Below are positions 1,706 to 20,973 of a stretch of 64,000 nucleotides of DNA, piece by piece. Source of the stretch: Sphingomonas alba (GTDB lineage Bacteria > Pseudomonadota > Alphaproteobacteria > Sphingomonadales > Sphingomonadaceae); contig NZ_JAMGBD010000001.1 in assembly GCF_023516555.1 (NCBI RefSeq), positions 1,116,001 through 1,180,000 of the forward strand. The letters are read 5' to 3'. The position numbers and the translations under genes were made by a program. The notes under the pieces were generated by a model that was given only the letters and a program-made list of their open reading frames with translations, ran no database searches and was not told where the DNA came from. Every line of letters begins with the position of its first letter. The stretch's first letter is position 1.

Positions 1706-1739
1706 TTCGAAGTCGCGATTGCGTCGTAGACGCGTCGGC

Positions 1740-2426: not shown

Positions 2427-2429
2427 TGC

Positions 2430-2458
2430 GTGTCACAAAACTGAAATCATAACGTCAC
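2430..2458 (+). promoter_or_regulatory. Pho box, three direct repeats, upstream of pstS
   Basis: GTGTCAC at 2430, CTGAAAT at 2441 and ACGTCAC at 2452 form three repeats with an 11-base period, the same layout as the box at 1677. The first repeat starts 4 bases after the DUF2490 stop. The site ends 72 bases before the pstS start, consistent with PhoB activation of a promoter in this gap. Confidence 0.8.
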
Positions 2459-2530
2459 AAGCGGGTCCCCATTCGGACGCTAGGGCGTGCCTCAGGGAAT
2501 TGAAAACCCGGCACGGGGAGTAACAGAGCA

Positions 2531-3568: not shown

Positions 3569-3585
3569 GCTGGAGCGGCGGGCGC

Positions 3586-4965
3586 ATGACGCTCCTCATC
3601 GCGCTCATCGCAATCGGCCTCGTTGCCGTGTCAGCCTGGTGGCTCGCCATCGGCCGGGCACGCGACCTGCGCGGAAAGGGAAGGCTCAACAGCCTTCCCG
3701 CCTACCATGGCGTCCATACCCTCCTGTGGGCCCTCCTCCCGGCGCTTTTGATGCTGGCGGTCTGGGCGCCGATCCAGACGACACTGGTCAACCAGGCGGT
3801 GCTGGCGAGCGCGGAGGGCAAGGCGCTCCCCGCTTTCGACATGCAGCGGGACGCCATCCTCGATGAGGCCCGCCAGATCGCGGCCGGGAACATCGATCAT
3901 GGCTACAACCCGCAATCGGAGCAGCTTGCGCCGCGCTTCAGCGAAGCCGAAAGCCGCTACGGCGCGATCGGCGGCGGCATTGCCCTGCTCCTCACCTTTG
4001 CCGGTGCGGCGCTGGCATTGCGCCGGGTCGTTCCGGAATTCCGCGCACGAGCTGGAGTCGAACGGTGGATTCAGGCACTGCTGGTCGCGGCATCGCTGAT
4101 CGCCATCCTGACGACTCTGGGCATCGTCCTGTCGTTGCTGTTTGAGTCGCTGCGCTTCTTCAAGCTGGTCAGCCCGGTCGAATTCCTGTTTGGCACGAGT
4201 TGGAGCCCGCAGACCGCGTTGCGGGCCGACCAGGCCGGGTCGTCGGGCGCTTTCGGATCGGTGCCGCTCTTCTGGGGCACCGCCTTCATCGGTGCGATCA
4301 TCGCTATGATCGTCGCCATCCCGCTGGGCCTGATGAGCGCGATCTTCCTGACACAATATTCGCCGCCGCGCCTGCGCGCATGGCTGAAACCGATCCTGGA
4401 AATCCTCGCCGGCGTCCCGACCGTCGTTTACGGATATTTCGCCGCGTTGACGGTGGCGCCGATGGTCCGCGACTTCGGCCTCGCCATCGGCATCACCTCC
4501 GCCAGCAGCGAAAGCGCGCTGGCCGCCGGCCTGGTGATGGGCATCATGATCATCCCGTTCGTCAGCTCGATGGCGGACGATAGCATTGCCGCCGTGCCGC
4601 AGGCGATGCGCGACGGCAGCCTTGCGCTCGGCGCGACCAAAGCGGAGACCATCAAGAAGGTGCTGCTTCCCGCCGCGCTCCCCGGTGTCGTCGGCGGCGT
4701 CCTGCTCGCCGTCAGCCGCGCCATCGGCGAAACGATGATCGTCGTCATGGCGGCCGGCCTCTCGGCCAACCTGACCGCGAACCCCTTCGCCAGCGTGACG
4801 ACCGTCACGACCCAGATCGTCCAGCTACTGACTGGCGACCAAGAATTCGACAGCGCCAAGACCCTTGCCGCGTTCGCGCTCGGCCTGGCGCTGTTCGTCA
4901 TCACACTCATTCTCAACCTCATTGGCCTCCGCGTAGTGCGCAAGTACCGGGAAGCATATGAGTAG
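3586..4965 (+). CDS. pstC: Phosphate ABC transporter permease PstC
   Basis: This is one of the two inner-membrane channel subunits of the high-affinity phosphate transporter. The 459-residue protein has two N-terminal spans (about 1-21 and 46-66), a hydrophilic loop of some 55 residues, another span, and then the permease core. The cytoplasmic ABC-coupling loop is visible around MRDGSLALGATKAETIKKVL. It is considerably longer than the roughly 320-residue enterobacterial PstC because of the N-terminal extension. Its last 8 bases overlap pstA, indicating translational coupling. Confidence 0.95.
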   Translation: MTLLIALIAIGLVAVSAWWLAIGRARDLRGKGRLNSLPAYHGVHTLLWALLPALLMLAVWAPIQTTLVNQAVLASAEGKALPAFDMQRDAILDEARQIAAGNIDHGYNPQSEQLAPRFSEAESRYGAIGGGIALLLTFAGAALALRRVVPEFRARAGVERWIQALLVAASLIAILTTLGIVLSLLFESLRFFKLVSPVEFLFGTSWSPQTALRADQAGSSGAFGSVPLFWGTAFIGAIIAMIVAIPLGLMSAIFLTQYSPPRLRAWLKPILEILAGVPTVVYGYFAALTVAPMVRDFGLAIGITSASSESALAAGLVMGIMIIPFVSSMADDSIAAVPQAMRDGSLALGATKAETIKKVLLPAALPGVVGGVLLAVSRAIGETMIVVMAAGLSANLTANPFASVTTVTTQIVQLLTGDQEFDSAKTLAAFALGLALFVITLILNLIGLRVVRKYREAYE

Positions 4966-6211
4966 CTCGTCAGCCAGCCGCTGGACCGACGGGTCGATGG
5001 ATAAGCGCGTACGGCGCCGCTACGCCGCCGAGCGGCGGTTCAGGCTGCTCGGCCTGCTCGCCATCGGCCTCAGCGTCGCCTTTCTCGCCTTCCTGCTGAT
5101 CAATATGGCGGCAAAGGGGCTTGGCGGCTTCAACCAGACCGAGGCGAAGCTGACCATCGACTTCCCGCGGTCGGACATCATCCTCGACCCGGCCACATTG
5201 AAGGGTCCCGAAGCCAAGCGTGCAGTCGCGTCGGCCGACCTCGAAACCGCGCTGAATGCTTCGGCCGTCAGCGAATATGGCACTGGCGCCAGCGACCTGT
5301 TCGGCCCGGCTGCCGCCCGGCAACTTGGCCGCGACCTGATCTCCGACCCGTCGCTGCTTTCCCGGCGTGCTGACCTCTGGCTGCCCGTCGCCAGCGCCTA
5401 TGATGTCGCCGCCAAAGACGAGGGTTCGACGAAAGCCGAGCAGATGGTCGCGGCGATCGGCGCCAAGGGTGCATTGCAGCGCGGCTTCAATTCCGACTTC
5501 CTCGGCGCGTCCGATGCAACCGACCCCGGTGCGGTCGGTGTCTGGGGAGCGCTCAAGGGCAGCTTCCTGACCATAATCGTCACCATTCTCCTGGCTTTCC
5601 CGGTCGGCGTGCTTGCGGCCGTCTATCTTGAGGAATTTGCGCCGAGAAACCGCTGGACCGACCTCATCGAGGTGTCGATCAACAACCTTGCCGCCGTACC
5701 GTCGATCATCTTCGGCCTGCTGGGCCTCGCAGTGTTCCTCAACTTCATGCACCTGCCGCGCTCCGCGCCCTTGGTAGGCGGCCTGACGCTCGCGCTGATG
5801 ACTATGCCGGTCATCGTCATCGCCGGGCGCAACGCCATCAAGTCCGTGCCGCCGTCGATCCGCGATGCAGCTTTGGGTGTCGGCGCGTCGAAAATGCAGG
5901 TGGTCTTCCACCATGTCCTGCCGCTGGCGTTGCCCGGCATTCTTACCGGCACGATCATCGGCATGGCCCGCGCGCTCGGAGAGACCGCGCCGCTGCTGAT
6001 GATCGGCATGCGCGCATTTATCGCCAATCCACCGCAAGGAATTGCCGATCCTGCCACCGTCCTGCCGGTGCAGATCTTCCTTTGGTCGGACGAGGTCGGC
6101 CGTGGCTTCGTCGAGAAGACCAGCGCGGCAATCATTGTCCTGCTCATCTTCATGCTGTTGATGAACGGCATCGCCATCTATCTTCGTAATCGCTTCGAGC
6201 GCCGCTGGTGA
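4958..6211 (+). CDS. pstA: Phosphate ABC transporter permease PstA
   Basis: The second channel subunit has 417 residues. It has a basic N terminus ([11 protein letters not shown]), one span at about 27-50, a large hydrophilic segment to about residue 190 that is absent from short enterobacterial PstA, and then the permease core of five spans. The coupling loop is [20 protein letters not shown]. The start at 4958 overlaps pstC by 8 bases and the end overlaps a GTG start of pstB by 4, so the three genes form one translationally linked unit. The inserted segment matches a periplasmic location by the positive-inside rule. Confidence 0.93.
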
Positions 6212-7035
6212 CACTGATGAACGAAATCCATGCCCCCGTTCCCGCCGACATCGACGAGCCGCCGGCGGACGCGAACCGCGCGCCGAAAATGAGCGCGCGC
6301 GATGTCAGCGTTTTTTATGGCGACAAGCAGGCGCTGAATGGCGTTTCGATCGACATTCGCGACGACCGCGTCACCGCCTTCATCGGCCCATCGGGCTGCG
6401 GCAAGTCGACGTTCCTGCGCTGCCTCAACCGCATGAACGACACGATCCCGAGCGCACGGGTGACGGGCAAGATCTCCCTCGACGGCCAGGACATCTACCA
6501 CTCCAACATGGATGTCGTGCAGCTGCGCGCCCGGGTAGGCATGGTATTCCAGAAGCCGAACCCCTTCCCCAAATCGATCTATGACAATGTCGCTTACGGT
6601 CCCAAGATCCACGGCCTTGCAAGCAGCAAGGGTGAGATGGACGGCATCGTCGAAAAGAGCCTGAAGCGCGCCGGCCTTTGGGACGAAGTGAAGGACCGGC
6701 TGAGCGAAAGCGGCACGGCCTTGTCCGGCGGCCAGCAGCAGCGGCTGTGCATCGCCCGCGCCATCGCCGTCGATCCCGAGGTCATCCTGATGGACGAACC
6801 CTGCTCGGCGCTTGATCCCATCGCCACCGCCAAGATCGAGGAGCTGATCCACGAGCTTCGCGGCCGCTATGCGATCGCCATCGTCACGCATAATATGCAG
6901 CAAGCCGCGCGCGTGTCGCAGCGGACCGCATTCTTCCACCTCGGTGAGATGGTGGAATATGGCAAAACCAGCGAGATCTTCACTAATCCGCGCGAGCGCC
7001 GCACGCAGGATTACATCACCGGCCGCTACGGTTGA
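6208..7035 (+). CDS. pstB: Phosphate ABC transporter ATP-binding protein PstB
   Basis: PstB hydrolyses ATP to drive phosphate import. The 275-residue protein carries Walker [10 protein letters not shown] (60-68), the ABC signature LSGGQQQR, Walker B VILMDEP followed by CSALDP, and a switch histidine in IVTHNMQQA. The first in-frame start is a GTG at 6208 overlapping pstA; an ATG at 6217 is an equally good alternative and changes only three residues. The N-terminal 30 residues before the fold are unusually rich in proline and acidic residues. Confidence 0.95.
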
Positions 7036-7049
7036 TCGGAGCAGCAGCA

Positions 7050-7739
7050 ATGGCGACTTCATCCGGACATACACTCAAGGCCTTCGACGACGATCTCGAT
7101 CGGCTGCGCGCACTTATTAGCGAGATGGGCGGGCTTGCCGAGCATGCGATCCGCGAGGCCATGCGCTGCCTGCAGCAGCGTGACGTCGAAGGCGCGGCGA
7201 AGATCGTCGAGAATGACGCGAAGCTGGACGCGCTTGAGGTCGAGACAGAGCGCCGCGCGGTGCAGCTGATCGCGCTGCGGGCGCCGATGGCGGGCGACCT
7301 TCGCGACGTCGTGGCCGCCCTTAAGATCTCGGGCGTCGTCGAGCGTATCGGCGACTATGCCAAGAACATAGCGAAGCGGGTGCCGCTCCTGGAGACAATG
7401 GGCAATATCGAACCATTGTCGCTCCTTCCCGAGATGGCGCGCATCGCGACAGAGATGGTCCACGACGTGCTGACCGCTTTCGTCGAGCGTGATGCAGACG
7501 CCGCGCTCCGGGTGATGGAGCGCGACCATGCGGTCGACGATTTCTACGATTCCATTTTCCGCACCTTGCTGACGCACATGATGGAAGACCCGCAAAGCAT
7601 CGGCCAGTCCGCGCATCTACTGTTCATCGCCAAGAATATCGAACGTGCCGGCGACCACGCCACCAACATCGCCGAGATGGTCTATTATGCCGCCACCGGG
7701 CAGCACATGACCGAGGCGCAGACGGGTAAGAAGCCATGA
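7050..7739 (+). CDS. phoU: Phosphate signalling protein PhoU
   Basis: PhoU links the Pst transporter to PhoR and keeps the Pho regulon off when phosphate is abundant. The product is an all-helical tandem repeat with the metal-binding signatures of the family: EVETERRAVQLIALRAP in the first half, and the later repeat near RAGDHATNIAE. The ATG at 7050 has a GGAG nine bases upstream and is preferred over an in-frame TTG at 7032 that overlaps pstB; it gives 229 residues. The stop overlaps the phoB start by 4 bases. Confidence 0.93.
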   Translation: MATSSGHTLKAFDDDLDRLRALISEMGGLAEHAIREAMRCLQQRDVEGAAKIVENDAKLDALEVETERRAVQLIALRAPMAGDLRDVVAALKISGVVERIGDYAKNIAKRVPLLETMGNIEPLSLLPEMARIATEMVHDVLTAFVERDADAALRVMERDHAVDDFYDSIFRTLLTHMMEDPQSIGQSAHLLFIAKNIERAGDHATNIAEMVYYAATGQHMTEAQTGKKP

Positions 7740-8425
7740 TGGCCAAGCGCCTCCTGCTTGTCGAAGACGACCGCCAACTCGCCGAGCTGGTCCGCTTCCA
7801 CTTCGACCGCGCCGGATATGAGGTGACGCGGACCGGTGACGGCGACGAAGCGCTGATCCTGGCCGAGGAGGTGCGCCCCGACCTCGTCATCCTCGATTGG
7901 ATGATCGAGGGCATCAGTGGCATCGAGGTCTGCCGCCGCCTGCGCCGCCGCCCGGCGACGGCCAACATGCCGATCATCATGCTGACCGCGCGCGGGGAAG
8001 AGAATGACCGGGTGCGCGGCCTGGAAACTGGCGCCGACGATTATCTCACCAAGCCCTTTTCGCCGAAGGAACTGGTCGCCCGCGCGGGTGCCGTCCTGCG
8101 CCGCGTGCGACCGGCACTCGCGGCGGAGACGCTCGATTACAACGGCATCGAGATGGACCTTGCTGCCCACCGGGTTCGTCGCGACGGCAAGAGCATCCAG
8201 CTCGGCCCCACAGAATATCGGCTGCTGCGCCATTTCCTAGAAAATGCGGGCCGCGTCTTCTCGCGCCAGCAGCTGCTCGAGACGGTCTGGCCGCATAGCG
8301 AGGATATCGAGCTGCGCACGGTCGATGTGCATATCCGGCGCCTGCGGCTGGCGCTCGGCGAGCCGGACATCATTCGGACCGTCCGCAGCGCCGGTTATGC
8401 GCTCGATGCGGAGGGGGTTGCCTAG
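7736..8425 (+). CDS. phoB: Phosphate regulon response regulator PhoB
   Basis: PhoB is the transcription factor that binds Pho boxes when phosphorylated by PhoR. The 229-residue protein has a receiver domain with acidic pocket E10-D12, phosphoacceptor Asp54 (VILDW), Thr84 and Lys106, and then an OmpR-type winged helix with the recognition-helix region RTVDVHIRRLR. Its predicted targets include the two triple-repeat boxes at 1677 and 2430 in this same cluster. The gene overlaps phoU by 4 bases. Confidence 0.95.
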   Translation: MMAKRLLLVEDDRQLAELVRFHFDRAGYEVTRTGDGDEALILAEEVRPDLVILDWMIEGISGIEVCRRLRRRPATANMPIIMLTARGEENDRVRGLETGADDYLTKPFSPKELVARAGAVLRRVRPALAAETLDYNGIEMDLAAHRVRRDGKSIQLGPTEYRLLRHFLENAGRVFSRQQLLETVWPHSEDIELRTVDVHIRRLRLALGEPDIIRTVRSAGYALDAEGVA

Positions 8426-8452
8426 GCAACGCGTCCGCCGCATGGGACGGCC

Positions 8453-9196
8453 ATGTCCCGGCGCAAGAAATCGCACCAGAGCCACGGCAGTCCGAACCGT
8501 CCCCGATTCTGGGGAAAACATGCGGTCGCCGCCGCGCTCTACAATCCCGACCGCAGGGTGGTTCGCGCCTGGGCGACGCGGGAGGCAGCCGGCTTCATGC
8601 AATTTCCGGACAGCGTCCCCGTGACGTTGGCGGACGTCGCCGACCTGGGCCGACTGGTGCCGCACGATGCGCCGCATCAGGGGGTCGTGATCGAGGCCGA
8701 GCCGCTGGAGGATATGTGGCTGGCCGACCTGCTGGCCGAAGCCGGCGAGCGATCGATCCTGCTGGTGCTCGACCAGGTCACCGACCCGCATAATGTCGGC
8801 GCGATTTTACGCTCGGCCGCCGCCTTTGGTGCGCTCGGCATCGTCACGCAGGATCGGCATTCGCCACCGGAGGGAGGGGTTATCGCCAAGGCGGCGTCGG
8901 GCGCACTGGAGCGAGTGCCCTGGGTGCGGGTTGTGAATCTCGCGCGTGCCCTGGAAGAGATGGCCGAGGCGGGCTTCTGGCGCATCGGCCTTGCAGGCGA
9001 TGCGAAGACCGACTTGAAGGACGCGCTGGGACCGCCGCGGGTCGCACTGGTGCTGGGGGCGGAAGGTCCGGGCATGCGTTCGAATACCCGTGAGCATTGC
9101 GACGCGCTTGCGCGGCTGCCGATTACGGATGCGGTCGAGAGTCTGAACGTTTCCAACGCCGCCGCCATTTCGCTCTACGCGGCGAGTATCGCCTGA
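8453..9196 (+). CDS. rlmB: 23S rRNA 2'-O-methyltransferase RlmB (SpoU/TrmH family)
   Basis: This S-adenosylmethionine-dependent enzyme is expected to methylate a ribose in 23S rRNA (the G2251 position in E. coli numbering). The 247-residue sequence shows the basic N terminus and WGKHAV segment of the RlmB substrate-binding domain. It is followed by the three SPOUT motifs: DPHNVGAILRSA, VLGAEGPGM and ESLNVSNAAAISLY. The stop codon overlaps the start of the downstream glycosylase as TGATG. The specific target is inferred from the family; a tRNA target is less likely given the N-terminal domain. Confidence 0.88.
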   Translation: MSRRKKSHQSHGSPNRPRFWGKHAVAAALYNPDRRVVRAWATREAAGFMQFPDSVPVTLADVADLGRLVPHDAPHQGVVIEAEPLEDMWLADLLAEAGERSILLVLDQVTDPHNVGAILRSAAAFGALGIVTQDRHSPPEGGVIAKAASGALERVPWVRVVNLARALEEMAEAGFWRIGLAGDAKTDLKDALGPPRVALVLGAEGPGMRSNTREHCDALARLPITDAVESLNVSNAAAISLYAASIA

Positions 9197-9813
9197 TGGT
9201 CCGCACGGTGAATTCCATCAATGCGGCGGTCGATGAGCTGGCGCGGCGTGAAAAGGCCTTTGCCAAGGTCTTGGAAAAGCACGGCCGGCCTGAGCCGCGA
9301 GTCAGCGAACCCGGCGCGACGACCCTGCTGCGAACGATTGTCGGCCAGCAGGTCAGCGTCGCCGCCGCGCGGTCAATGTGGGCCAAGTTGGAGGCGGGTT
9401 ATGGCTCCCCGCCCGACCTCTCCAAGATCCTGAAAGCGACGGACGAGGAACTGCGCGTGGCAGGCCTGTCGCGGCAGAAGGCGGGCTATGCGCGCAGCCT
9501 TGCCGGCCTCGTGCTGTCGGGTGAGCTCGACCTCGGCAAGCTGCCGGTCGACGATGAGGAGGCCATCGAGCTCCTCACCAAGATCAAGGGCATCGGCCGC
9601 TGGTCGGCGGAGATTTACCTGCTGTTCGCGGAAGGGCGGACGGACGTCTGGCCGGCGGGGGACCTCGCCGTCCAAATTGAGATTGGCAAGCTGCTCGGCC
9701 TCGAAGGCAAGCCGAGCGAGAAGCAATTGCGCGAGCTTGCGGATAAGTGGCGGCCGCATCGCGGCGCCGTCGCCGTGCTCGCCTGGCACAGCTACAATTC
9801 GCAGGTCCTGTAA
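9196..9813 (+). CDS. DNA-3-methyladenine glycosylase II-like (AlkA, HhH-GPD family)
   Basis: This 205-residue base-excision repair enzyme should remove alkylated purines from DNA. The helix-hairpin-helix is visible as TKIKGIGRWSAEIYLLF. The catalytic aspartate lies 21 residues or so later in VWPAGDLAVQ, the standard HhH-GPD arrangement. It lacks the extra N-terminal domain of E. coli AlkA, like many compact bacterial versions. The ATG at 9196 overlaps the rlmB stop and begins MVRTVNSINAAVDEL; the frame continues upstream inside rlmB but with shadow-like composition. It abuts a convergent gene at 9814. Confidence 0.85.
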   Translation: MVRTVNSINAAVDELARREKAFAKVLEKHGRPEPRVSEPGATTLLRTIVGQQVSVAAARSMWAKLEAGYGSPPDLSKILKATDEELRVAGLSRQKAGYARSLAGLVLSGELDLGKLPVDDEEAIELLTKIKGIGRWSAEIYLLFAEGRTDVWPAGDLAVQIEIGKLLGLEGKPSEKQLRELADKWRPHRGAVAVLAWHSYNSQVL

Positions 9814-11058
9814 CTAGCTGCGAATGCCCTTTTCGTAGCGGCGGGCGGCGAGCGCCTTCCAGCCGCGCTTCCCCTGATCGAGACGGAGCGGCGACAGCCG
9901 CGCGCCGTCATTGGCGGCCTTGCCTCCAACCAGGAAGCTCGCGGCGCTCTGCCCCTCGCCGCTCGACCAGCGATAGCGCGAATTCAGCGCGACCATGGGC
10001 ATGAACAATTTGCGGCCCTCGACTTCATATTCGCGCACCGACGCTCGCGGAAGGCGGACGGCGCTCTTGAGCGTGATGCGCGCCATGGGCGCCACCGCCG
10101 GGATCTTGTCCCGAACCTGCGACGGCGCGGTGTAGAATTCGCCCAGCTGCGCGTCCTGCTGGTCACCGGCGTTGATCATACAGGCCTCGACGGCGACGTC
10201 GCGAGCCGGAGCGCTTCCCGAATTGAAGATGGTGACATCGAAGGCGATGGCCGCATGGTCTTCGGTCAGGGTCGCCTGGCTGGGCTCAAGCTCCAGCTCG
10301 ATCCATGGACGAAGGCTGGAGGCCACAACGCCAGCAGGTACTGCTGGCTCGGCGCTGCGTAGGCTGGAGGTGACGACGCCTGAAGGCACCGGAGGCGCCT
10401 GGGGCTCGGGCCGGCGGACAAGCGGCTCCTCAGCCCGGCGCGGCGCTGCAACCGGAGCCGAAGCAGGTTCGGGAGTTGCCTCGAAGTAATCGGATACCCC
10501 GGCTGCCTCGTAACGGCGGCCGCGACGCTGCAGCCCGAAATAGACGGCAGCGCCGGCGGCGAGCAGGAGGATCGCCGCAATCCACGGCAAGGGCGAGAAA
10601 TCTGACGAGGCCTGAGCAGGCAGCGCGACAACTACGGGCGCCACTGCGGCGGGCGCCGTAATGGGCCGCGTTGCCGCCGGTGCTGGCGCGTTGGTCCCAC
10701 CCGGGATGGGATCGATCACGCTGCTCGGCTGGGCCTGAATGGGGCGCGGTTCGCTTGTGGCTGCCCGGACCTGAGCGGGCCGCTCCACAACTGATGTGGC
10801 CGGCGCAGCCGTCCGCGTTGCGGGCTCGCGGGGCGGAGCGGCAGCCGGTTGCTGCTCGGCAGGCTGCGGCTGCGCTTCGCGCGTGACCGTGCCGCTGAGG
10901 CTGAAATTGGATAGCTCGCGCGGGCCAATGTCAGCCGCGGGCTGGGTAGCGGCCGGGGCGGCCGACGTGGAATTGTCCTGAGCAAGCACTGGCGAGCTGG
11001 CGATCAGCAATGCCGCCAGCCCGCAATGTCCAACCAAACCCCTGAACTTATTCACCAA
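9814..11058 (-). CDS. Pro/Ala-rich single-span membrane protein, unknown function
   Basis: The 414-residue protein has a signal peptide ending about residue 26 (SSPVLAQ). A low-complexity Pro/Ala/Gln-rich stretch follows to about 150, then one membrane span (PLPWIAAILLLAAGAAVYF) and a C-terminal domain from about 240 that looks beta-rich. A 16-residue repeat occurs just before that domain: PSGVVTSSLR is followed by PAGVVASSLR, which shows in the DNA as a 48-base repeat at about 10313 and 10361. No enzyme motif is visible. It converges tail to tail with the glycosylase gene with no gap. Confidence 0.75.
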   Translation of the reverse strand: MVNKFRGLVGHCGLAALLIASSPVLAQDNSTSAAPAATQPAADIGPRELSNFSLSGTVTREAQPQPAEQQPAAAPPREPATRTAAPATSVVERPAQVRAATSEPRPIQAQPSSVIDPIPGGTNAPAPAATRPITAPAAVAPVVVALPAQASSDFSPLPWIAAILLLAAGAAVYFGLQRRGRRYEAAGVSDYFEATPEPASAPVAAPRRAEEPLVRRPEPQAPPVPSGVVTSSLRSAEPAVPAGVVASSLRPWIELELEPSQATLTEDHAAIAFDVTIFNSGSAPARDVAVEACMINAGDQQDAQLGEFYTAPSQVRDKIPAVAPMARITLKSAVRLPRASVREYEVEGRKLFMPMVALNSRYRWSSGEGQSAASFLVGGKAANDGARLSPLRLDQGKRGWKALAARRYEKGIRS

Positions 11059-12814: not shown

Positions 12815-13804
12815 ATGGCCGACTCCAGCAACGCATTCGCGATCCGATTTCACGAGACGGGCGGGCCCGAGGTCCTGGCCGTCGAGCCGATTCATGTTGG
12901 TGATCCAGGCCCTGGCGAAGTCCGGATCCGCCACAAAGCTGTCGGCCTCAATTTCATCGACACCTATTTCAGGACCGGCCTCTATCCCGTCGAATTGCCC
13001 GGAGGGCTCGGCAATGAAGCCGCCGGCGTTGTCGAGGCAGTCGGCGCCGACGTCACCGGATTCATGGCCGGTGACCGTGTCGGTTATTTCAGCGGGCCGG
13101 TCGGCGCCTATGCGACACACCGCCTCGTCAGGGCGGACTTGCTGGTGAAGCTGCCTGACGGGATCTCCAGCGAACAGGCTGCGGCCGCGATGTTGAAGGG
13201 CTGCACCGCCGAATATCTCATCGAACGCTGCGCCAAGGTTGAACCCGGTCAATGGGTGCTGGTCCACGCCGCGGCCGGCGGTGTCGGCTCCATCGCCGTA
13301 CAATGGCTGAAGGCCATCGGCGCCAAGGTCATCGCCCACAGCGGCAGCGCCGCCAAGGCGGAGCTAGCGACCGGACTGGGTGCGGATATCTCCTTGCACT
13401 GCCCGATGGATGAGCTTGCGGCGAAGGTCCGCGAAGCGACCGGGGGCGAAGGCGTGCCAGTCGTGCTCGACGGCGTCGGCGAAGCAAGCTGGGAGGCATC
13501 GCTTGCGTCGCTCGCGAGGCGCGGCCTGATGGTCACTTATGGCAATGCGTCGGGGCCGGTTCCCGCCTTCGCACCGCTGGAGCTCAGCCGCCGCGGCTCG
13601 CTGTTCGTTACGCGGCCGACCTTGTTCGATTATTGCGCGACGCCTGCCGAAATGCGGTCTTCAGCAGCCCGCTTGTTCGAAATGATGCTGTCTGGCAGTG
13701 TCGAGGTGCAGATCGGTTCGCGCTATCCACTGGCCGACGCCGCCGAGGCCCACCGGGCATTGGAATCGCGGGCGACGACCGGTTCGACGATTCTGATGGC
13801 CTAA
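12815..13804 (+). CDS. NADPH:quinone reductase-like medium-chain dehydrogenase
   Basis: The 329-residue protein belongs to the zinc-independent quinone oxidoreductase branch of the MDR superfamily. An N-terminal GroES-like domain carries GLNFIDTYFRTGLYP, the QOR signature. A Rossmann fold follows, with HAAAGGVGSIAVQWLKAIGA around residues 148-167. No catalytic zinc cysteines are seen. It should reduce quinones or activated alkenes with NADPH; the natural substrate is unknown. It is the last backbone gene before the tRNA-Leu island, whose outer repeat begins 30 bases after its stop. Confidence 0.88.
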   Translation: MADSSNAFAIRFHETGGPEVLAVEPIHVGDPGPGEVRIRHKAVGLNFIDTYFRTGLYPVELPGGLGNEAAGVVEAVGADVTGFMAGDRVGYFSGPVGAYATHRLVRADLLVKLPDGISSEQAAAAMLKGCTAEYLIERCAKVEPGQWVLVHAAAGGVGSIAVQWLKAIGAKVIAHSGSAAKAELATGLGADISLHCPMDELAAKVREATGGEGVPVVLDGVGEASWEASLASLARRGLMVTYGNASGPVPAFAPLELSRRGSLFVTRPTLFDYCATPAEMRSSAARLFEMMLSGSVEVQIGSRYPLADAAEAHRALESRATTGSTILMA

Positions 13805-13834: not shown

Positions 13835-13852
13835 ATGGTGCCCAGGAGAGGA
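13835..13852. repeat. Island attachment site, left copy (displaced tRNA-Leu 3' end)
   Basis: The 18-mer ATGGTGCCCAGGAGAGGA is identical to 20886-20903, where it forms the 3' end of the tRNA-Leu gene including the encoded CCA. The bases just outside differ (A at 13834, G at 20885). This is the direct repeat expected from integration by a tyrosine recombinase into a tRNA 3' end. Confidence 0.9.
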
Positions 13853-13915
13853 ATGGACCCCTCGACCCCAAAAACGGCGGATTCAAGCCAACCACGGCAC
13901 GACCGACCCGCACGA

Positions 13916-13941: not shown

Positions 13942-14604
13942 TCAAGGGATGCGAAACGTTATCCGCCTCTGGTTTTCGCCGCCGCACGCTACGCACGCGC
14001 CCTTCACAAGCTGGGGATCATCTTGCAGGTCGCGCAACAGCTTTGGAGAGGAAGGCAGCGCAAGGAAAGCGGACACTGACACGGCGGCACGTTCACCGCA
14101 CGCGCAACAAACGACCTCAACCTCAATTCCGTCCTGCTCAGCCTGTTCAAGAGTGAACTGTCGCAGCCATTTTTTGGGCAAGTCCTCTTTGGTGATGGGA
14201 GGCCCCGCCTTGTTTTGCAAAGTTGTCTGATTGGCGATGTCATAGCCCCGCGTCCGACACAGGCGGGCATAGTTGGTCTCCGAGAGCAACGATTGGAGGC
14301 GCGTCGGCTGGCGATCCAGCACCTCAAAGTTCGGCACAACTCCAGCATGTAGCAGCTCTTTCAGCCGGTATTTGATTCCCTTCCCCTTTCGGGCGAGCTT
14401 CTCGGACTTGCGCAGATGGTTTCGCACCCGCTGCCCGAACTCGTCCGTTTGGCCGACATAGACAGGCCAACCAGCAGGGTTACCTCGCAAGTCGGGACGC
14501 CGTGGGTCCCGCATCAGGTAGGTTATCCACGTTCCTTCCTGGTTCGCCGCCTGGGCCAAGGCAATCTGGCGCTCTATCGCCGCGTTGACCTCCTTGCCGC
14601 CCAT
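13942..14604 (-). CDS. GIY-YIG-like nuclease with C-terminal zinc ribbon
   Basis: The 220-residue protein has an N-terminal region with the layout of the GIY-YIG nuclease fold: a first strand WITYLMRDP (26-34), VYVGQT (48-53) in place of YIG, an Arg/His helix QRVRNHLRK (R59, H63), and SETNYARL with Glu109 at the metal-binding glutamate position, followed by GYDIANQT. The C terminus has two CxxC pairs, C166/C169 and C204/C207, forming a zinc ribbon likely to bind DNA or RNA. It is the second gene of an operon, 5 bases after the ExoI-like gene. GIY is replaced by TYL, so catalytic activity is probable but unproved. The target is unknown. Confidence 0.65.
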   Translation of the reverse strand: MGGKEVNAAIERQIALAQAANQEGTWITYLMRDPRRPDLRGNPAGWPVYVGQTDEFGQRVRNHLRKSEKLARKGKGIKYRLKELLHAGVVPNFEVLDRQPTRLQSLLSETNYARLCRTRGYDIANQTTLQNKAGPPITKEDLPKKWLRQFTLEQAEQDGIEVEVVCCACGERAAVSVSAFLALPSSPKLLRDLQDDPQLVKGACVACGGENQRRITFRIP

Positions 14605-14609
14605 GACGG

Positions 14610-16010
14610 TTAGCTACCCGCCAGTAGAGCGGATGCCTGCTGGAGCTTTTGGGCGACATATTCACGGTAGCTGCGCAACATATCCGCGTGGGCCGCTTCG
14701 CCTTCTGCCTGCATCTTGGCGGCTTCTTCGTCAGCCGCTGCCAGGGTGAGGAAAGGGGCCTTTTCACAACCGTGTCCAAGCAGCCTCATGGCGACGAGCC
14801 GCGCCCGCTCCGTCCGCATTTCAGAGGGCAGGCTTTCTGGGCAATGCGAATAGATCAGGCGCATAGCCAATGCGCGGAACCTAGCGTCTTGAATCTGCAC
14901 GGCGATGGCAAAACGGTCGCACCAAGGTGCCGCATGAAAACGCAACATGGCAGCATTGTCTGAAGGCGATGCGAACCCGTTGTAGATTTGTTCCTCAACG
15001 TGGTCACTGGGATCGTATGTCTTGCCTGGGGTCAGAGCGATTATCCGAGCAACCAGATCAGGCCGAGACGCGAGAAAGGCCGCACGCTCGGCGAGCGTGG
15101 CATAGGCAATCCCGTCAAATGGTTGCCCGGCCCAGCCAGCTACCAATGGAGCCTTATTCGGCTTGATTGTGCGCAAGGGACTGGTTTTTCGTCGGAGCCA
15201 CACCCCTAGCTGTTCGTCATCTAGACCAACGAGCTGACTCGGATCGACGGTGAGGTCATACGCCAGCACTGCCCCCATACCGTTTAACTGGTTACCCAAC
15301 GTGGTCAGAACGTGTTCCTTGAGGCCACCTTGGTATGAGTAGCTCCGCGCAACGTAGACCGGATTGTCGTGGATGACTGCCAAGGCACGCGACTTGGACG
15401 CGCAGTGGAGGAGTTGCTCCCAGGCGGCGGGCGCCTTCTCCTTGATCTTGCGACAGATGAAAATTGTCGCCTCCACATCCGCCATAGCGTCGTGAGCGTT
15501 GAGGTGAGGAAAGCCATTTGCTGGCGCGAGCTGGGCCAGCCCATAGACTGGCTTACCCTTCTCGTCTCTCGGCAAGGTTAGGACGTCGCTGGCGAACGCT
15601 TCAACGCACTGCGCCAGTTTCAGAATGTCCGCTCTTTGGTTGCCGTTCGTGTTGGTCAGGTAAGGTGGATGGAGGCAACGGTAGAAGGCCTGCTGCAGGA
15701 GCGGTTCATCATAGCCGATCGTGTTCCAGCCGACGAACGTAGTCGGGCACCAGGCGGCGATACGATCTCGGACCTGGCAGATCATCTCATAGTGGCTGGG
15801 AAGTGCTGGGTCGGTGATCCGCTCGATCGTCATACCCGTTACACGGAGAGCACCCGCTGAAGGGACTGTGTGCTCGTCCAGTCGGCAGCGAATCTCAAAC
15901 CGATCGATCTCGTTTAAGTCGTCGTCAGTTAGGATGGCGCCGAACTGTAGGATTTGGTCAAAGAACTTGTTCTTGCCGGTAGTTTCGGTGTCATAGAAAA
16001 CGAAGCTCAT
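14610..16010 (-). CDS. Exonuclease I (SbcB)-like DEDDh 3'-5' exonuclease
   Basis: The 466-residue protein matches the architecture of exonuclease I, which degrades single-stranded DNA from the 3' end. The DEDDh catalytic set is complete: Asp7 and Glu9 in FYDTETTG, Asp101 in GWNTIGYDEPLL, His173 and Asp178 in NAHDAMADVEAT, the last almost identical to E. coli SbcB. The length is close to the 475 residues of SbcB, so the SH3-like and helical C-terminal regions are probably present, although their sequence is divergent. SbcB is mainly gammaproteobacterial, and this copy sits on an island coupled to a GIY-YIG-like protein. A role in defence, anti-plasmid activity or element processing is inference. 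Confidence 0.82.
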   Translation of the reverse strand: MSFVFYDTETTGKNKFFDQILQFGAILTDDDLNEIDRFEIRCRLDEHTVPSAGALRVTGMTIERITDPALPSHYEMICQVRDRIAAWCPTTFVGWNTIGYDEPLLQQAFYRCLHPPYLTNTNGNQRADILKLAQCVEAFASDVLTLPRDEKGKPVYGLAQLAPANGFPHLNAHDAMADVEATIFICRKIKEKAPAAWEQLLHCASKSRALAVIHDNPVYVARSYSYQGGLKEHVLTTLGNQLNGMGAVLAYDLTVDPSQLVGLDDEQLGVWLRRKTSPLRTIKPNKAPLVAGWAGQPFDGIAYATLAERAAFLASRPDLVARIIALTPGKTYDPSDHVEEQIYNGFASPSDNAAMLRFHAAPWCDRFAIAVQIQDARFRALAMRLIYSHCPESLPSEMRTERARLVAMRLLGHGCEKAPFLTLAAADEEAAKMQAEGEAAHADMLRSYREYVAQKLQQASALLAGS

Positions 16011-16265: not shown

Positions 16266-16946
16266 ATGATGAAAGTCGTCATCTACTACCGCGTTTCCAC
16301 TGTCGCGCAGGGACGTTCGGGATTGGGCCTCGACGCCCAGCGAATTGCGGTCGAGCAATACTGTCGTGGACGCTCCTGTGAGGTCCTCGACGAGTTCGTG
16401 GAGGTGGAGAGTGGTAAATACAACGACCGTCCGAAGCTCGCAGAAGCGCTTCACCTCGCCAAGGTGACAGGGGCGACGATGCTGGTAGCCAAAATGGACA
16501 GACTCTCCCGCAATGCCGCCTTTCTCCTGACACTTAGGGACAGCGGGGCCAAGCTGGTTGCGGCAGACCAGCCCGATGTGAACGATATGACCGTGGGTAT
16601 CTTGGCGGTAGTTGCTGAGGAGGAGCGCAAGGCGATCTCCGCTAGGACCTCAGCGGCTCTTCAAGCGGCGAAGGCAAAGGGCCGTAAGCTGGGCAACCCG
16701 AACGGCGCGGCGGCGCTACGTCGAGCCGGAAAAGGCAACAGCGCGTCCGTGAAAGCAATCAAGGAGGCGGCGGACCGCCACGCCAACGATATCGCTCCCA
16801 TCATCCGACACTTGCGCGACCAAGGCCGCGTTTCGTTACGCGAGTTGGCGGCTGGCTTGAATGAGCGCCACATACGGACCCCGCGTGGCGGCGCATGGCA
16901 TCCTACGTCCGTCAAGAACCTTCTCAATCGCGTCGGATTTGGCTAA
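16266..16946 (+). CDS. Serine recombinase (resolvase/invertase type)
   Basis: The 226-residue protein carries out site-specific DNA recombination through a covalent serine-DNA intermediate. The N-terminal catalytic domain shows YYRVS with Ser11, the MDRLSRN motif (Asp78, Arg79, Arg82) and the long E helix around EEERKAISARTSAAL. The C terminus (about 188-224, LRELAAGLNERHIRTPRGGAWHP in two parts) is the start of a recombinase-type DNA-binding domain, as in large serine recombinases but cut short. In IS607 transposases the DNA-binding domain comes first, so this is not a standard IS607 TnpA. It is 9 bases upstream of tnpB and immediately downstream of a 26-bp palindrome. A second ATG at 16269 is an alternative start. 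Confidence 0.87.
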   Translation: MMKVVIYYRVSTVAQGRSGLGLDAQRIAVEQYCRGRSCEVLDEFVEVESGKYNDRPKLAEALHLAKVTGATMLVAKMDRLSRNAAFLLTLRDSGAKLVAADQPDVNDMTVGILAVVAEEERKAISARTSAALQAAKAKGRKLGNPNGAAALRRAGKGNSASVKAIKEAADRHANDIAPIIRHLRDQGRVSLRELAAGLNERHIRTPRGGAWHPTSVKNLLNRVGFG

Positions 16947-16955
16947 CAACAAACG

Positions 16956-18116
16956 GTGATTAACCGAGGCTTCCGCTTCCGGCTCTATCCGACCGAAGAA
17001 CAGGCTGTCAGGCTGAGTCAGTTCGCGGGCGCAACTCGTTTCGTTTACAATCTTGCCCTGGAGCAGCGCTCGACGTTCTGGCGTCCAGGCCGCCGTTTCA
17101 ATTACGTTACCCAAAACAGAGAAGTGACCCAGCTCCGCGCGGAAGTGCCTTGGCTGGCGGAAGTTTCGGCGGCTTCGTTGACGAATGCGCTGCGGGATTT
17201 GGATCAAGCCTTTGCGGCATTTTTCGCCCATCGTTCCGGCTATCCGACCATGCGGACTCGGGAGCGCAACAGCAGTTTCCGTGTCAAAGGCGAAGAAATC
17301 GCCGCCAAGAAACTGAACCGCCGTTGGGCGGCTGTTCGCATCCCTAAGATTGGCTGGGTTCGTTACCGCGACACGCGCCCTTTGCGGGGCCGAACCCTGA
17401 ACGCCACGATTGGCCGGGATGCCCTTGGATGGCATGTCTGTTTCGCCTGCGAAATCGAACACGAAGCGCAGCCGTCAGCGTTGCCCTCGGTCGGCATAGA
17501 CAGAGGCGTTGCGAATACGATTGCGCTCTCGACTGGCGAATTGCTCTCGACGCCCGCTACGAAAACCCTGGAGCGCCGCAAGAAACGCGCCCAGCGCATC
17601 CTCGCCCGCCGCCAGCGCGGCTCCGCGCGCTATCGCAAGCAGCGCCAGCGCCTCAGCCGCATCACCTCCAAGATCGCCCGCGTCCGCGCAGATTGGCGAC
17701 ACAAGGCCACGACAGGCATTGCCGATCGCTTCGGCCTGGCCGCAATCGAGGATTTGAACACCAAGGGCATGACCGCAAAGGGGCGCGGCAAGCGCGGCCT
17801 CAATCGGTCGATCCTGGAGCACGGCTGGCACCGTTTCGAGACGACACTGGCCTACAAATTGGAAGAGCGCGGCGGGACGCTGGTTAAGATCAATCCCGCT
17901 TATACGAGCCAAGAATGCTCGGCGTGTGGTGTCACCGACAAAGCGAGCAGAGAGAGCCAATCGCGCTACGCTTGTCGACATTGTGGCACCACGATCCACG
18001 CCGACACGAATGCGGCAATCAATATCCTCCGGCGAAGCTCGCCGGCTATGCTCGTGGAGGGCGCCGGTTACGGCCCCGCTGAAGCGAGAACCGTCAATCA
18101 TGCGCTGGTCGCATGA
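16956..18116 (+). CDS. tnpB: TnpB-family RNA-guided endonuclease (IS200/IS605/IS607 type)
   Basis: TnpB proteins are transposon-encoded RNA-guided DNA nucleases that help the element persist, and are relatives of Cas12. This 386-residue protein is of full length. The RuvC triad is intact: Asp182 in GIDRGV, Glu265 in AAIEDLNTKGM and Asp350 in HADTNAAINI. The zinc ribbon has C321, C324, C340 and C343. The N-terminal RLYPTEEQ and the bridge-like arginine-rich segment around 205-245 are also typical. The start is a GTG 9 bases after the recombinase stop, suggesting co-transcription. A perfect 6-bp hairpin overlaps the stop codon, as expected for the guide RNA region at a tnpB 3' end. No IS605-type TnpA is present. 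Confidence 0.9.
   Translation: MINRGFRFRLYPTEEQAVRLSQFAGATRFVYNLALEQRSTFWRPGRRFNYVTQNREVTQLRAEVPWLAEVSAASLTNALRDLDQAFAAFFAHRSGYPTMRTRERNSSFRVKGEEIAAKKLNRRWAAVRIPKIGWVRYRDTRPLRGRTLNATIGRDALGWHVCFACEIEHEAQPSALPSVGIDRGVANTIALSTGELLSTPATKTLERRKKRAQRILARRQRGSARYRKQRQRLSRITSKIARVRADWRHKATTGIADRFGLAAIEDLNTKGMTAKGRGKRGLNRSILEHGWHRFETTLAYKLEERGGTLVKINPAYTSQECSACGVTDKASRESQSRYACRHCGTTIHADTNAAINILRRSSPAMLVEGAGYGPAEARTVNHALVA
18099..18115 (+). other. Hairpin at the tnpB 3' end (possible omega-RNA element)
   Basis: CATGCG, loop CTGGT, CGCATG forms a perfect 6-bp stem covering the last codons and the start of the stop codon of tnpB. A further GC-rich stem lies just upstream around 18059-18078. TnpB guide RNAs are normally processed from the 3' part of the tnpB transcript and end at the element boundary. 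The assignment is inference from position and structure only. Confidence 0.35.
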
Positions 18117-18178: not shown

Positions 18179-18928
18179 TTAAACGTCCAACATCTTCTCC
18201 CTGTCTAACGGGAGGTTCGACCGGTAGATTGCCTCCATGTATCGCGTTTCGCCGTTCGCCAGACGGTCAGCTACGCCCAACAGCCGATACATCGCCTCCG
18301 GCTGTTCGCCCTCGTCCAACTGGAGAAACAACTCCTCGGCATAGGCTAGCGCCTCCTCGAACTCGTCGAGGCCAGGACTAATAAAGCGCTTGTCGGGTTC
18401 GGGTGGGCCTTGCGCGTCATCGGGGTCTTCGGCGGGCGTGATGCCTTCGGCCTTGAGCCAATTCCTGACTGTCGCGTGGGAGACAATGTAGTGGAGGTCG
18501 CTCGCCATCCGCCGAAGGGACTTTGGAGACCCGTCGCGACCCAAGTGGTCGCCGCGCTCCAGGTAGATGCGGAAGATGTTCCGCTTGTCCTTCCGGTTCA
18601 GATTGAGGCCGTGGTCAACGTTCGCCTTGAAGGCCTCGCGGACGGCGGCCTGTTCGCTTAGCTTGGCTATCTTGGCGTTGAGGGCGGGAAGGCCCGCCTG
18701 GAGCGCCGCCTCCACGCGGTGGAAACCGTCCAAGATGTAGAGGCGTCCGTCAACGCTCGCGACGGTGATAGCCGGAAACCCATCACCTCGGCGCATGTCG
18801 TAGACGTATTTCTTGACCCGCTTTGCATCCAGGCCCTCGGCGCGAATTTGGAAACGCTGGTCGATGTTCAGGGCCTTCAAACCGACTGACTTGTAGCGCC
18901 AGTTGGGGCCGTCGTTTGATTTCGGAAT
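18179..18928 (-). CDS. ParB N-terminal-like domain protein, probable ATT start
   Basis: The 249-residue product has a ParB/sulfiredoxin-like core: a strand-helix region LDAKRVKKYV, then GFPAITVASVDGRLYILDG and the nucleotide-site motif GFHRVEAAL, followed by helical DNA-binding-like sequence (HATVRNWLKAEG) and an acidic tail. ParB-type folds bind CTP or act as nucleases; which applies here is not visible. An AAGGAG at 18936-18941 sits 7 bases before an ATT codon (18926-18928), and no ATG, GTG or TTG is correctly spaced to that site, so an ATT start is proposed. Earlier ATG starts in the frame (19057) give an unlikely arginine- and proline-rich leader; a TTG at IIe-distal position GLKAL is the other option. 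It follows the integrase on the same strand. Confidence 0.7.
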   Translation of the reverse strand: MPKSNDGPNWRYKSVGLKALNIDQRFQIRAEGLDAKRVKKYVYDMRRGDGFPAITVASVDGRLYILDGFHRVEAALQAGLPALNAKIAKLSEQAAVREAFKANVDHGLNLNRKDKRNIFRIYLERGDHLGRDGSPKSLRRMASDLHYIVSHATVRNWLKAEGITPAEDPDDAQGPPEPDKRFISPGLDEFEEALAYAEELFLQLDEGEQPEAMYRLLGVADRLANGETRYMEAIYRSNLPLDREKMLDV

Positions 18929-19074
18929 TGCTCTTCTCCTTGTAAAGTTTGAACAGTTGGGGAGGACGTTTTTCAGAGGGAAAGTTGGGGTGGGCCGTCC
19001 ACCCGGCCGGACACGATATTGAATTGGGTCGCGCTCTCGGGAGCGGGCTGTCGCCATCTGCTTCGGTGACCCCG

Positions 19075-20775
19075 CTAAAGAGGAGGCTCCCAGTGGCGGA
19101 CCTTCTCCAGGCCCCAGCCGACGAACGACAGCTTCAGCATCTCGCGGCTCAGCGGCTCGCGCGAGCCATACCTCGCGTTCATGTCGTTAGCCTTGGGCGC
19201 GTGACCCATCAGATAATCTTGAGCCTCGCGACTTACGCCGCTCTCGCGAGCAATCGTTGCCCAAGTTGGCCGGAACTCGCGAGCGGGCCGCTTCCCCTTC
19301 AAGCCGACGCCGCTCTCGCCGAGATAGTTGCTCCACCATTCGCCGAAACTCGCGAACAGTTCGCGTCGTTCGCCCTTGGGGCGCAGCGCCGGAAATAATG
19401 CGATTTCGCCACGGCTCTTCAGCCACGCGACGTAGCGGTCGAACCCAAGGTCCGTAAGGACAGAGGGCAAGGGGATGATGCGCTCGGCGCTCGGCGACTT
19501 GAGCTTCCTTGGTCCCTTGTGGGGATGCTCGCCGAGCATGGTGATGGCGAGGGTCCAGCTTCCGCTTTCGTTGTCATGGGCGACGTCGGCGACGAGCGTC
19601 TGAGCCAGCTCCTCGGGCCTGGCCCCTGTCGTCAGAAGAAGCAACGGCAACCAGTAAGAAGCGTCCCCCCTCCCCCGCGCAGGCCGCTCTCCGGCTACAA
19701 AGATTGGAAGGCCAAAGACGGCCTTTGCCTCGTCGCGGGTCAACCCATGGTTCTTGCGGGTCGCGGGAGCCTTGCCCAGCATCGGGCGGGTAAACGGATT
19801 GCCCAGCGCATCGGCGATGCGACCGGAGCGCTGACACTTGCTCCAAGCGGCCTGGAGCGCGCCGATGATAGTAGCGCGCGTCTTGTGGGATAACCGGTCA
19901 ACCTGATCCCCGTCATAAGCCTCGACGAGCCTCCGCAAGGTCCATCCGCGCCGACTTTGCGGCACAGCCCTCTTGAGAGGCGAGAGAGCCAACAGGTCGG
20001 CTAGGTCGCTGACATGGCGGCGGGTGATTTGTTCAGGCGCAAGATCGCCGTGGGCCTCGGTGAAGTAGCGCAAGGCCGTGTTCCAGCTTTGCTTCGTGGA
20101 CGGCCCTCCCGAAAACGTCGGCCTCGTCATCTCCTCGCGGACGAGAGCCGCGAATGAGTTGGCTTCTGCGCGCGTCGCCACCTCGCGCTTGGTCGGCGGC
20201 GGCTCGGGGACAATCGGCGTCAAGATTGGATTGCCCCTGTCGCGCTCCATGCGGGCGCTGTTGGCGCGAATGGTGGCGCGCAAAAGGTCCAAGCAAAGAG
20301 CCGAGAAGGCGTCGGTGGACGTATCGAACACCCAACCTTGTTTCGCCGCGAGCGCAATCGCGTCGCTCTCGAACATCTCCCGAATGAGAGGAATATTGTT
20401 CCGGTAGAGGGTCTCCCTCAATCCGTCGTCGGCGGCGTCGTGACAGTCGGGGTCGGCGGTCCCCGCGACCCTCGCGGCGTCGTCGGCCTTGAGGCAAGCG
20501 GCCTCGTGGCTCTCCACCAGCCACGCACTCCGGCTTTCGTCCAAAGTATCAAACGAGCGGGAGGTGACCTTACGCGCTTGAAGGAGGAGCCGTTCGTAAC
20601 CTGTGAGGGCTGAACGATAGCGCTCGATCGCCCCAGCTTCGCTGAGACAGCGAGCCTCAAGGGTTACAATATGCTCACGGCGACGAATGTAGTGTCTGAC
20701 GTCGCTGGGATAGGCGCGACGGAACTCAAGGCGGCCCGATTTAAGCCGCCGAACGAACTTCCCTGTAATCGGCAT
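19075..20775 (-). CDS. int: Tyrosine-type site-specific integrase of the island
   Basis: The 566-residue integrase should catalyse insertion and excision at the tRNA-Leu 3' end. Visible elements are an N-terminal MPITGKFVRRLKSGRLEFRR segment, a SAM-like core-binding region near the middle, box I TTGARPEEL with the first arginine, the beta-hairpin lysine in KLKSPSAERIIPL, a box II reading REFRPTWAT, LMGHAP, and the nucleophile Tyr at about 536 in NARYG. Box II normally reads HxLRHTWAT, so the His of HxxR is Arg and the following His is Pro. The ATG at 20775 has an AGGAG eight bases upstream; a start at 20874 would lie inside the attachment region and is rejected. Confidence 0.88.
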   Translation of the reverse strand: MPITGKFVRRLKSGRLEFRRAYPSDVRHYIRRREHIVTLEARCLSEAGAIERYRSALTGYERLLLQARKVTSRSFDTLDESRSAWLVESHEAACLKADDAARVAGTADPDCHDAADDGLRETLYRNNIPLIREMFESDAIALAAKQGWVFDTSTDAFSALCLDLLRATIRANSARMERDRGNPILTPIVPEPPPTKREVATRAEANSFAALVREEMTRPTFSGGPSTKQSWNTALRYFTEAHGDLAPEQITRRHVSDLADLLALSPLKRAVPQSRRGWTLRRLVEAYDGDQVDRLSHKTRATIIGALQAAWSKCQRSGRIADALGNPFTRPMLGKAPATRKNHGLTRDEAKAVFGLPIFVAGERPARGRGDASYWLPLLLLTTGARPEELAQTLVADVAHDNESGSWTLAITMLGEHPHKGPRKLKSPSAERIIPLPSVLTDLGFDRYVAWLKSRGEIALFPALRPKGERRELFASFGEWWSNYLGESGVGLKGKRPAREFRPTWATIARESGVSREAQDYLMGHAPKANDMNARYGSREPLSREMLKLSFVGWGLEKVRHWEPPL

Positions 20776-20813
20776 TCCACACACTCCTGCTGGCGGCGCT
20801 GTGGAGCGCCGAT

Positions 20814-20850
20814 TTGTAGCGTCGGAGTGGATGGAAGTGCTTGTAGTTCG
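20814..20850 (+). repeat. Candidate integrase arm-type sites, right end
   Basis: TTGTAGCG at 20814-20821 repeats the octamer seen twice at the left end, and TTGTAGTTCG at 20841-20850 is a partial copy. They lie between the integrase start codon and the right attachment repeat, the usual place for arm sites. Confidence 0.4.
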
Positions 20851-20885
20851 CCATTTTTCTTGTCGCCCAATCACTTAGGCGGCTG

Positions 20886-20903
20886 ATGGTGCCCAGGAGA
20901 GGA
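20886..20903. repeat. Island attachment site, right copy, within tRNA-Leu
   Basis: This copy of the 18-mer covers the T-arm distal strand, acceptor strand, discriminator base and CCA end of tRNA-Leu plus one base beyond it. Integration therefore restored a complete tRNA gene. Confidence 0.9.
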
Positions 20904-20973
20904 CTCGAACCTCCACGCCCTTGCGAGCGCCAGCACCTGAAGCTGGTGCGTCTACCAATTCCGCCACCTGGGC
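20887..20973 (-). tRNA. tRNA-Leu(CAG)
   Basis: Read on the minus strand, the acceptor strands GCCCAGG and CCTGGGC pair perfectly. The D arm has GGCGGAATTGGTAGACGC. The anticodon stem CCAGC/GCTGG encloses the loop TTCAGGT, giving anticodon CAG. A long variable arm and the T loop GGTTCGAGTCC follow. The CCA end is encoded. The length of 87 bases suits a class II leucine tRNA. It is the integration target of the island on its 3' side. Confidence 0.96.

What the first reader, a model, noticed from the sequence alone, without database searches (positions are those of the whole stretch)
13942..16010. Two-gene operon pairing an ExoI-like DEDDh exonuclease with a GIY-YIG/zinc-ribbon protein
Two nuclease-type proteins, 5 bases apart, are the main cargo of a mobile island. 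The ExoI-like protein has all five catalytic residues but belongs to a family rare in alphaproteobacteria. The partner combines a GIY-YIG-like fold with a double-CxxC ribbon. An endonuclease that nicks plus a 3'-5' single-strand exonuclease that resects would make a plausible defence or anti-plasmid system. I know no described system with this pair. This is the best candidate for something new in the window.
Basis: partly seen in the sequence, partly recalled or inferred. Interest (0 to 1): 0.75.

Follow-up and report, generated by a model that had tools for sequence, protein, structure and literature searches.

The report
Two-nuclease cargo of a tRNA island
A small mobile DNA island in a bacterium related to Sphingomonas carries two intact-looking nuclease genes side by side, one of a kind that elsewhere often travels with bacterial immune systems, so the pair is probably anti-phage or anti-plasmid cargo, but the pairing itself is rare and its joint function is unproven.

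Summary

The specific pair is not a conserved operon: of 397 family genomes 7 have the exonuclease and 10 the GIY-YIG protein (own genome counted in both); only this one has both. One metagenome contig (178,126 bp) appears to hold both.

The exonuclease branch is the more telling part. In 10 of 26 fetched neighbourhoods it is the third gene of an HTH-ImmA/IrrE-exonuclease operon (CapH-CapP type), some beside CBASS or ubiquitin-like operons; single loci sit with Thoeris, DRT-UG6 or a NotI system; 15 show neither arrangement. A different exonuclease, Cap18, is already reported with CapH-CapP. I read the window pair as probable defence cargo: a GIY-YIG endonuclease with an ssDNA exonuclease. New variant of a known kind; joint action is inferred.

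The parts
14610..16010 (-). ExoI/SbcB-type DEDDh 3'-5' exonuclease, 466 aa; D7, E9, D101, H173, D178 intact
13942..14604 (-). GIY-YIG endonuclease-like protein with C-terminal four-cysteine ribbon, 220 aa; Y29, Y49, R59, E109, N125 intact
14605..14609 (-). 5-nt gap between the two genes (operon-like, possible translational coupling)
13835..13860 (.). distal att-like repeat of the island (88% to the tRNA-Leu 3' end; on the - strand it shares TCCATTCCTCTCCTGGGCACCAT with the distal end of sister island L172)
20887..20973 (-). tRNA-Leu (CAG), integration site
19075..20874 (-). integrase of the island (PHROG phrog_1 integrase)
18179..19057 (-). ParB-like island backbone protein (closest homologues of 205-257 aa suggest a later start)
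16266..16946 (+). serine resolvase (IS607-like by eye), also present in sister island L172
16956..18116 (+). TnpB-type protein next to the resolvase

Best explanation
The two genes are cargo of a small integrase-driven island at tRNA-Leu(CAG). Most likely they serve defence against incoming DNA. The GIY-YIG protein would be the cutter: an endonuclease whose C-terminal cysteine ribbon helps it choose or hold DNA (domain roles inferred from fold and residues). The ExoI-type protein would then eat 3' ends of the single strands that cutting, nicking or phage replication produce, making the damage irreversible or clearing ssDNA. Shown: presence, order, conserved active sites, GIY-YIG fold (by model), mobility, and that this exonuclease branch sits repeatedly beside immune genes. 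Inferred: catalytic activity, co-expression, defence role, cooperation of the two.
For: Active sites conserved in both families. GIY-YIG fold with PD-T4-3/CMoRE, a single-component anti-phage GIY-YIG nuclease, among the best structural matches (PMC12923530, passages). Exonuclease relatives: HTH-CapP-exonuclease operon in 10 of 26 loci, exonuclease match starting 11-82 bp after the end of the peptidase match (capP model E 1e-27 for the L003 peptidase; M78 domains in L007 and L035); neighbours CBASS cyclase plus SLATT effector (L007), genes annotated multiubiquitin and ThiF (L005, L006), Thoeris ThsA/ThsB (L037), DRT-UG6 (L038), C5-MTase plus NotI (L033). All 7 plasmid records with this CapP subfamily at E <= 1e-20 are the 7 records H2-H8 with the exonuclease; three of them are near-copies. 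The window protein nests inside the CapP-containing part of the tree. Same island backbone with different cargo in L172. A GIY-YIG homologue (34%) in congener G145 (L026) lies beside a related resolvase (47%). The pair may persist on one metagenome contig.
Against: Pair adjacency is not conserved. 15 of 26 exonuclease loci have no HTH-CapP pair, and some copies look like core genes. No methyltransferase or transcription regulator among the seven island ORFs scanned. The window exonuclease has no CapH-CapP neighbour, and the neighbours of its own clade could not be read. The GIY-YIG protein has only weak PADLOC matches (E 0.018 and 0.05). The L005 multiubiquitin protein has no PADLOC match. The simple promoter scan found no site upstream of the exonuclease (sigma-70 consensus only).
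Confidence: 0.45

Rival explanations
1. Two independent cargo genes that landed side by side: a stand-alone GIY-YIG nuclease (type IV restriction-like) and a stand-alone accessory exonuclease, each perhaps defensive, with no joint function.
For: Each family is mostly found without the other (7 and 10 of 397 genomes, own included, only the own genome with both; no exonuclease in 20 GIY-YIG neighbourhoods). GIY-YIG homologues sit in varied contexts. Of 16 exonuclease clusters at 54-63% identity on contigs of 7.5 kb or more, one shares a contig length with a listed GIY-YIG cluster.
Against: 5-nt operon-like spacing and the apparent co-occurrence on a second, diverged contig that is not among the contig lengths of the 15 ParB-like hits.
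Confidence: 0.35
2. The exonuclease is a signal-clearing enzyme, as proposed for Cap18: it removes ssDNA that would activate CapP-type regulators or build up as damage; in this island it only restrains or protects against the GIY-YIG nuclease.
For: HTH-CapP-exonuclease operons. A review states that Cap18, a 3'-5' exonuclease, coexists with CapW or CapH+CapP and may remove the ssDNA or ssRNA linked to them (PMC10419184, passage). ExoI keeps DRT9 poly-dA in check in E. coli (PMC12483538, passages).
Against: No CapH-CapP genes among the island ORFs scanned. Direction of effect untested.
Confidence: 0.12
3. The pair serves the island itself (excision, integration, copy repair) and is not defence.
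For: Genes lie in the element; GIY-YIG nucleases drive intron homing (established knowledge).
Against: The sister island L172 with the same backbone lacks the pair; among the exonuclease loci the window integrase matches only L085, at 26%, so the exonuclease does not travel with this integrase.
Confidence: 0.07
4. Remnant of a DRT (reverse transcriptase) system: PADLOC calls the exonuclease RTasSbcB.
For: RTasSbcB hit, 367 bits.
Against: The model is not specific: a copy in a DRT-UG6 locus scores 767 bits, while a core-like copy (L088) scores 314 and two CapP-linked copies 310 and 378. No RT among the island ORFs scanned.
Confidence: 0.01

Closest known systems
E. coli exonuclease I (SbcB; NCBIfam PRK11779)
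   Same: Same two-part architecture (DEDDh plus ExoI C-terminal region) and catalytic residues
   Different: About 29-30% identical over 76% of the length; 193 bits against the equivalog cut-off of 260; on an island, in a genome with no second copy at E <= 1e-3
PADLOC RTasSbcB (DRT-UG6-associated SbcB)
   Same: Same broad alphaproteobacterial SbcB family
   Different: No reverse transcriptase, primase-like or nitrilase gene among the island ORFs scanned; score 367 against 767 bits for a DRT-linked copy
Cap18 with CapW or CapH+CapP (Liang et al. 2022, seen only as described in a passage of PMC10419184)
   Same: 3'-5' exonuclease genomically tied to ssDNA-responsive immune regulators
   Different: No chain under a Cap18 name came up for the window exonuclease; the strong structural relatives are all ExoI. 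I could not read the Cap18 paper
PD-T4-3 / CMoRE GIY-YIG type IV nuclease
   Different: Lacks the third tyrosine (GIYxY) said to mark CMoRE; C-terminal part is a four-cysteine ribbon; here it follows an exonuclease gene, while CMoRE is single-component
UvrC / I-TevI GIY-YIG domains
   Same: Fold and catalytic residues (roles recalled)
   Different: No UvrC or intron context; ribbon domain

Membership tests
ExoI/SbcB superfamily (DEDDh plus Exonuc_X-T_C) | Both Pfam domains and five catalytic residues | tested here: met
   Pfam above cut-offs; residues aligned to ExoI, invariant in 16 rows
Housekeeping exodeoxyribonuclease I equivalog (PRK11779) | Score above curated cut-off | tested here: not met
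   193 against 260 bits
GIY-YIG nuclease superfamily | GIY-YIG fold | tested here: met
GIY-YIG nuclease superfamily | Catalytic Tyr, Tyr, Arg, Glu, Asn | tested here: met
   Y29, Y49, R59, E109, N125 invariant in 11 chosen rows; R59 at 90% or more in 26 rows; assignment of roles is by motif order, recalled from I-TevI/UvrC
CMoRE (PD-T4-3) | Third tyrosine, GIYxY-YIG | tested here: not met
   Window motif is ITYLM...YVG
DRT with SbcB | Reverse transcriptase gene beside the exonuclease | tested here: not met
   No RT among the seven island ORFs scanned
CapH-CapP-exonuclease operon | HTH and ImmA/IrrE genes upstream in the operon | tested here: not met
   None among the island ORFs; 10 of 26 relatives have them
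Cap18 | Membership by sequence in the Cap18 exonuclease family | tested here: inconclusive
   No Cap18-named chain among hits; Cap18 paper not held
tRNA-targeted integrative island | Integrase beside tRNA, direct repeat of the tRNA 3' end, empty site in a relative | tested here: met
   the fully syntenic empty site was seen in 1 genome (G456)
Conserved two-gene defence system | Adjacency kept across genomes | tested here: not met
   one possible second case

The most novel reading that the evidence does not exclude
An SbcB/ExoI-type exonuclease is a transferable third component of CapH-CapP immune control modules in alphaproteobacteria (a counterpart, of another family, of the reported Cap18), which clears the ssDNA that switches these modules on; and in this island the same exonuclease has been coupled to a GIY-YIG endonuclease to make a minimal two-gene defence system.
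Probability: 0.2. Interest if true: 0.62.

Novelty: new variant of a known kind. Interest (0 to 1): 0.4.

Why it matters
If the pair defends, it shows a very small cut-and-resect defence unit carried by a 7-kb island. More generally, the tight HTH-CapP-exonuclease linkage makes a testable point: does an ExoI-type enzyme end, or feed, the ssDNA signal that turns on CBASS and ubiquitin-like immune operons? It also warns that the PADLOC RTasSbcB model marks a broad family, not only reverse-transcriptase systems.

Full report

The island. A tRNA-Leu(CAG) at 20887-20973 has an integrase beside it, and its 3' end recurs at 13835-13860 (26 nt, 88%), bounding about 7.05 kb. G+C is 0.56-0.61 over the pair, up to 0.645 over the integrase, and mostly 0.64-0.69 outside. 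In the congener G456 the pirin, gamma-carbonic-anhydrase and PilZ genes of the left flank lie directly beside the tRNA and the epimerase gene (L152/L175): the island is absent, and so is the oxidoreductase 12815-13804, which lies outside the repeat. In G448 (L172) the same site carries an integrase (58%), ParB-like protein (74%) and serine resolvase (74%) in the same order, then other genes, and ends at a copy of the same att variant. Its contig length, 2,463,131, equals that of the Sphingomonas sp. LY29 contig behind P0187. G438 and G439 have related integrases (about 49%) at the same tRNA. So exonuclease plus GIY-YIG occupy what looks like a swappable cargo slot. In congener G145 (L026) a GIY-YIG homologue (34%) lies about 0.2 kb from a related resolvase (47%) and some 5 kb from an integrase match (39% over 192 aa), so GIY-YIG genes may be recurrent cargo of such elements.

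Is the pair conserved? In 397 family genomes the GIY-YIG search hit 10 (E <= 1e-3) and the exonuclease search 7 (E <= 1e-20), the own genome counted in both; only the own genome is in both lists. In 71 genus genomes the exonuclease is found once, in the own genome (E <= 1e-15). In 396 order genomes GIY-YIG hits 13, own included, at E <= 1e-10. Twenty neighbourhoods with GIY-YIG homologues (8 fetched, 9, L039 and L040, plasmid L002) show no exonuclease at E <= 1e-3. None of 26 exonuclease neighbourhoods shows GIY-YIG; four of these end close to the exonuclease on one side. In the protein database, P0002 (GIY-YIG, 73%) and P0069 (exonuclease, 63%) both list a 178,126-bp longest contig from the same sources; I infer one contig with both, order unknown. 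Of 16 close exonucleases (54-63%) on contigs of 7.5 kb or more, 15 share no contig length with a listed GIY-YIG protein. The lists show one longest contig per cluster and only 120 of 1344 exonuclease hits, so this is indirect.

What the exonuclease branch does elsewhere. Five plasmid relatives (35-38%) all read HTH - ImmA/IrrE - exonuclease. HTH and peptidase of L007 and L035 match HTH_3 and Peptidase_M78, and the peptidase of L003 matches PADLOC capP (E 1e-27). The same order is in L034, L035, L079, L083, L086: 10 of 26 loci in all, the exonuclease match starting 11-82 bp after the peptidase match. In L037 HTH and peptidase lie about 2.5-3.4 kb beyond the exonuclease's end, with Thoeris ThsA (E 1e-180) and ThsB (E 2e-65) between. 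L007 stands beside a CBASS cyclase and SLATT effector; L005 and L006 beside genes annotated multiubiquitin and ThiF (the L005 protein has no PADLOC match). L038 is a DRT-UG6 locus; L033 has a C5-methyltransferase and a NotI-type enzyme downstream. Searching plasmids with the CapP of L007 gave 7 records, the same 7 as the exonuclease records H2-H8; three are near-copies, so five lineages. Against this: 15 of 26 loci show neither arrangement, the loci were taken from the best-scoring hits, and L088, L090, L092 look by eye like chromosomal core copies. The tree (75 rows) places the window protein inside the CapP-containing part, in a clade of metagenomic proteins (22 rows, SH-aLRT 100) whose neighbours I could not read.

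Mechanism. CapP is reported to be activated on binding ssDNA and to cleave CapH, and 219 of 544 Bub operons were found with CapW or CapH+CapP (PMC13373217, passages). A review describes Cap18, a 3'-5' exonuclease, with CapW or CapH+CapP, possibly removing ssDNA or ssRNA (PMC10419184, passage). E. coli ExoI degrades the poly-dA made by DRT9 (PMC12483538, passages). So ssDNA exonucleases as accessories of immunity are known; an SbcB-type one in CapH-CapP operons I did not find in print in the held library (searches: listings, with passages of three listed papers), which lacks the Cap18 paper itself. For the window, the regulators are absent and a GIY-YIG protein sits where an effector might. PD-T4-3/CMoRE shows that a lone GIY-YIG protein with an added sensing domain can be a complete defence (PMC12923530, passages); the window protein lacks its third tyrosine. 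I therefore favour cut-and-resect defence cargo (0.45), with two independent cargo genes close behind (0.35).

Novelty. The families are known. The pairing is not described in anything I saw, but only one narrow search was made for it (GIY-YIG, exonuclease and 'defence islands': no paper), and the pairing is rare. The more general point, an SbcB-type third gene in CapH-CapP operons, is a variant of the Cap18 idea.

Noticed in passing
L003-L007, L034, L035, L079, L083, L086: HTH - CapP-type ImmA/IrrE - SbcB-type exonuclease operons, some divergent from CBASS or multiubiquitin/ThiF operons; all 7 plasmid records with this CapP subfamily also have the exonuclease.
   Followed up: partly
L037 (G356) 1519-6256: Thoeris ThsA/ThsB pair lies between an HTH-CapP pair and an SbcB-type exonuclease.
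   Followed up: partly
L033 (G095) 6328-10446: SbcB-type exonuclease followed on the same strand by a C5-methyltransferase and a NotI-type restriction enzyme.
   Followed up: partly
L091 (G546) 3563-5990: Exonuclease overlaps a 352-aa gene with a sub-threshold HATPase match and a STAS-like start by eye; might be a CapK-like kinase. No PADLOC match.
   Followed up: no
window 20887-20973 and L172, L173, L174: tRNA-Leu(CAG) is an integration site in this genus with related integrases and different cargo; the three L172 cargo ORFs (5603-7566) have no Pfam family above cut-off.
   Followed up: partly
L026 (G145) 4051-9822: A GIY-YIG homologue (34%) lies beside a resolvase (47%) and near an integrase stretch (39%) related to those of the window island.
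   Followed up: partly
window 16266-18116: Serine resolvase plus TnpB inside the island; the sister island L172 has the resolvase at the matching place, and no TnpB was noticed there by eye (not searched).
   Followed up: partly
window 12815-13804: Quinone oxidoreductase-like gene just outside the att repeat is also missing from the empty site of G456.
   Followed up: no
PADLOC model PDLC03817 (RTasSbcB): The model scores core-like, CapP-linked and other alphaproteobacterial SbcB proteins at about 300-425 bits, so a hit does not imply a reverse-transcriptase system.
   Followed up: yes
L027 (G264) 8389-10085: A GIY-YIG homologue directly follows a gene that looks by eye like a DNA methyltransferase.
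   Followed up: no
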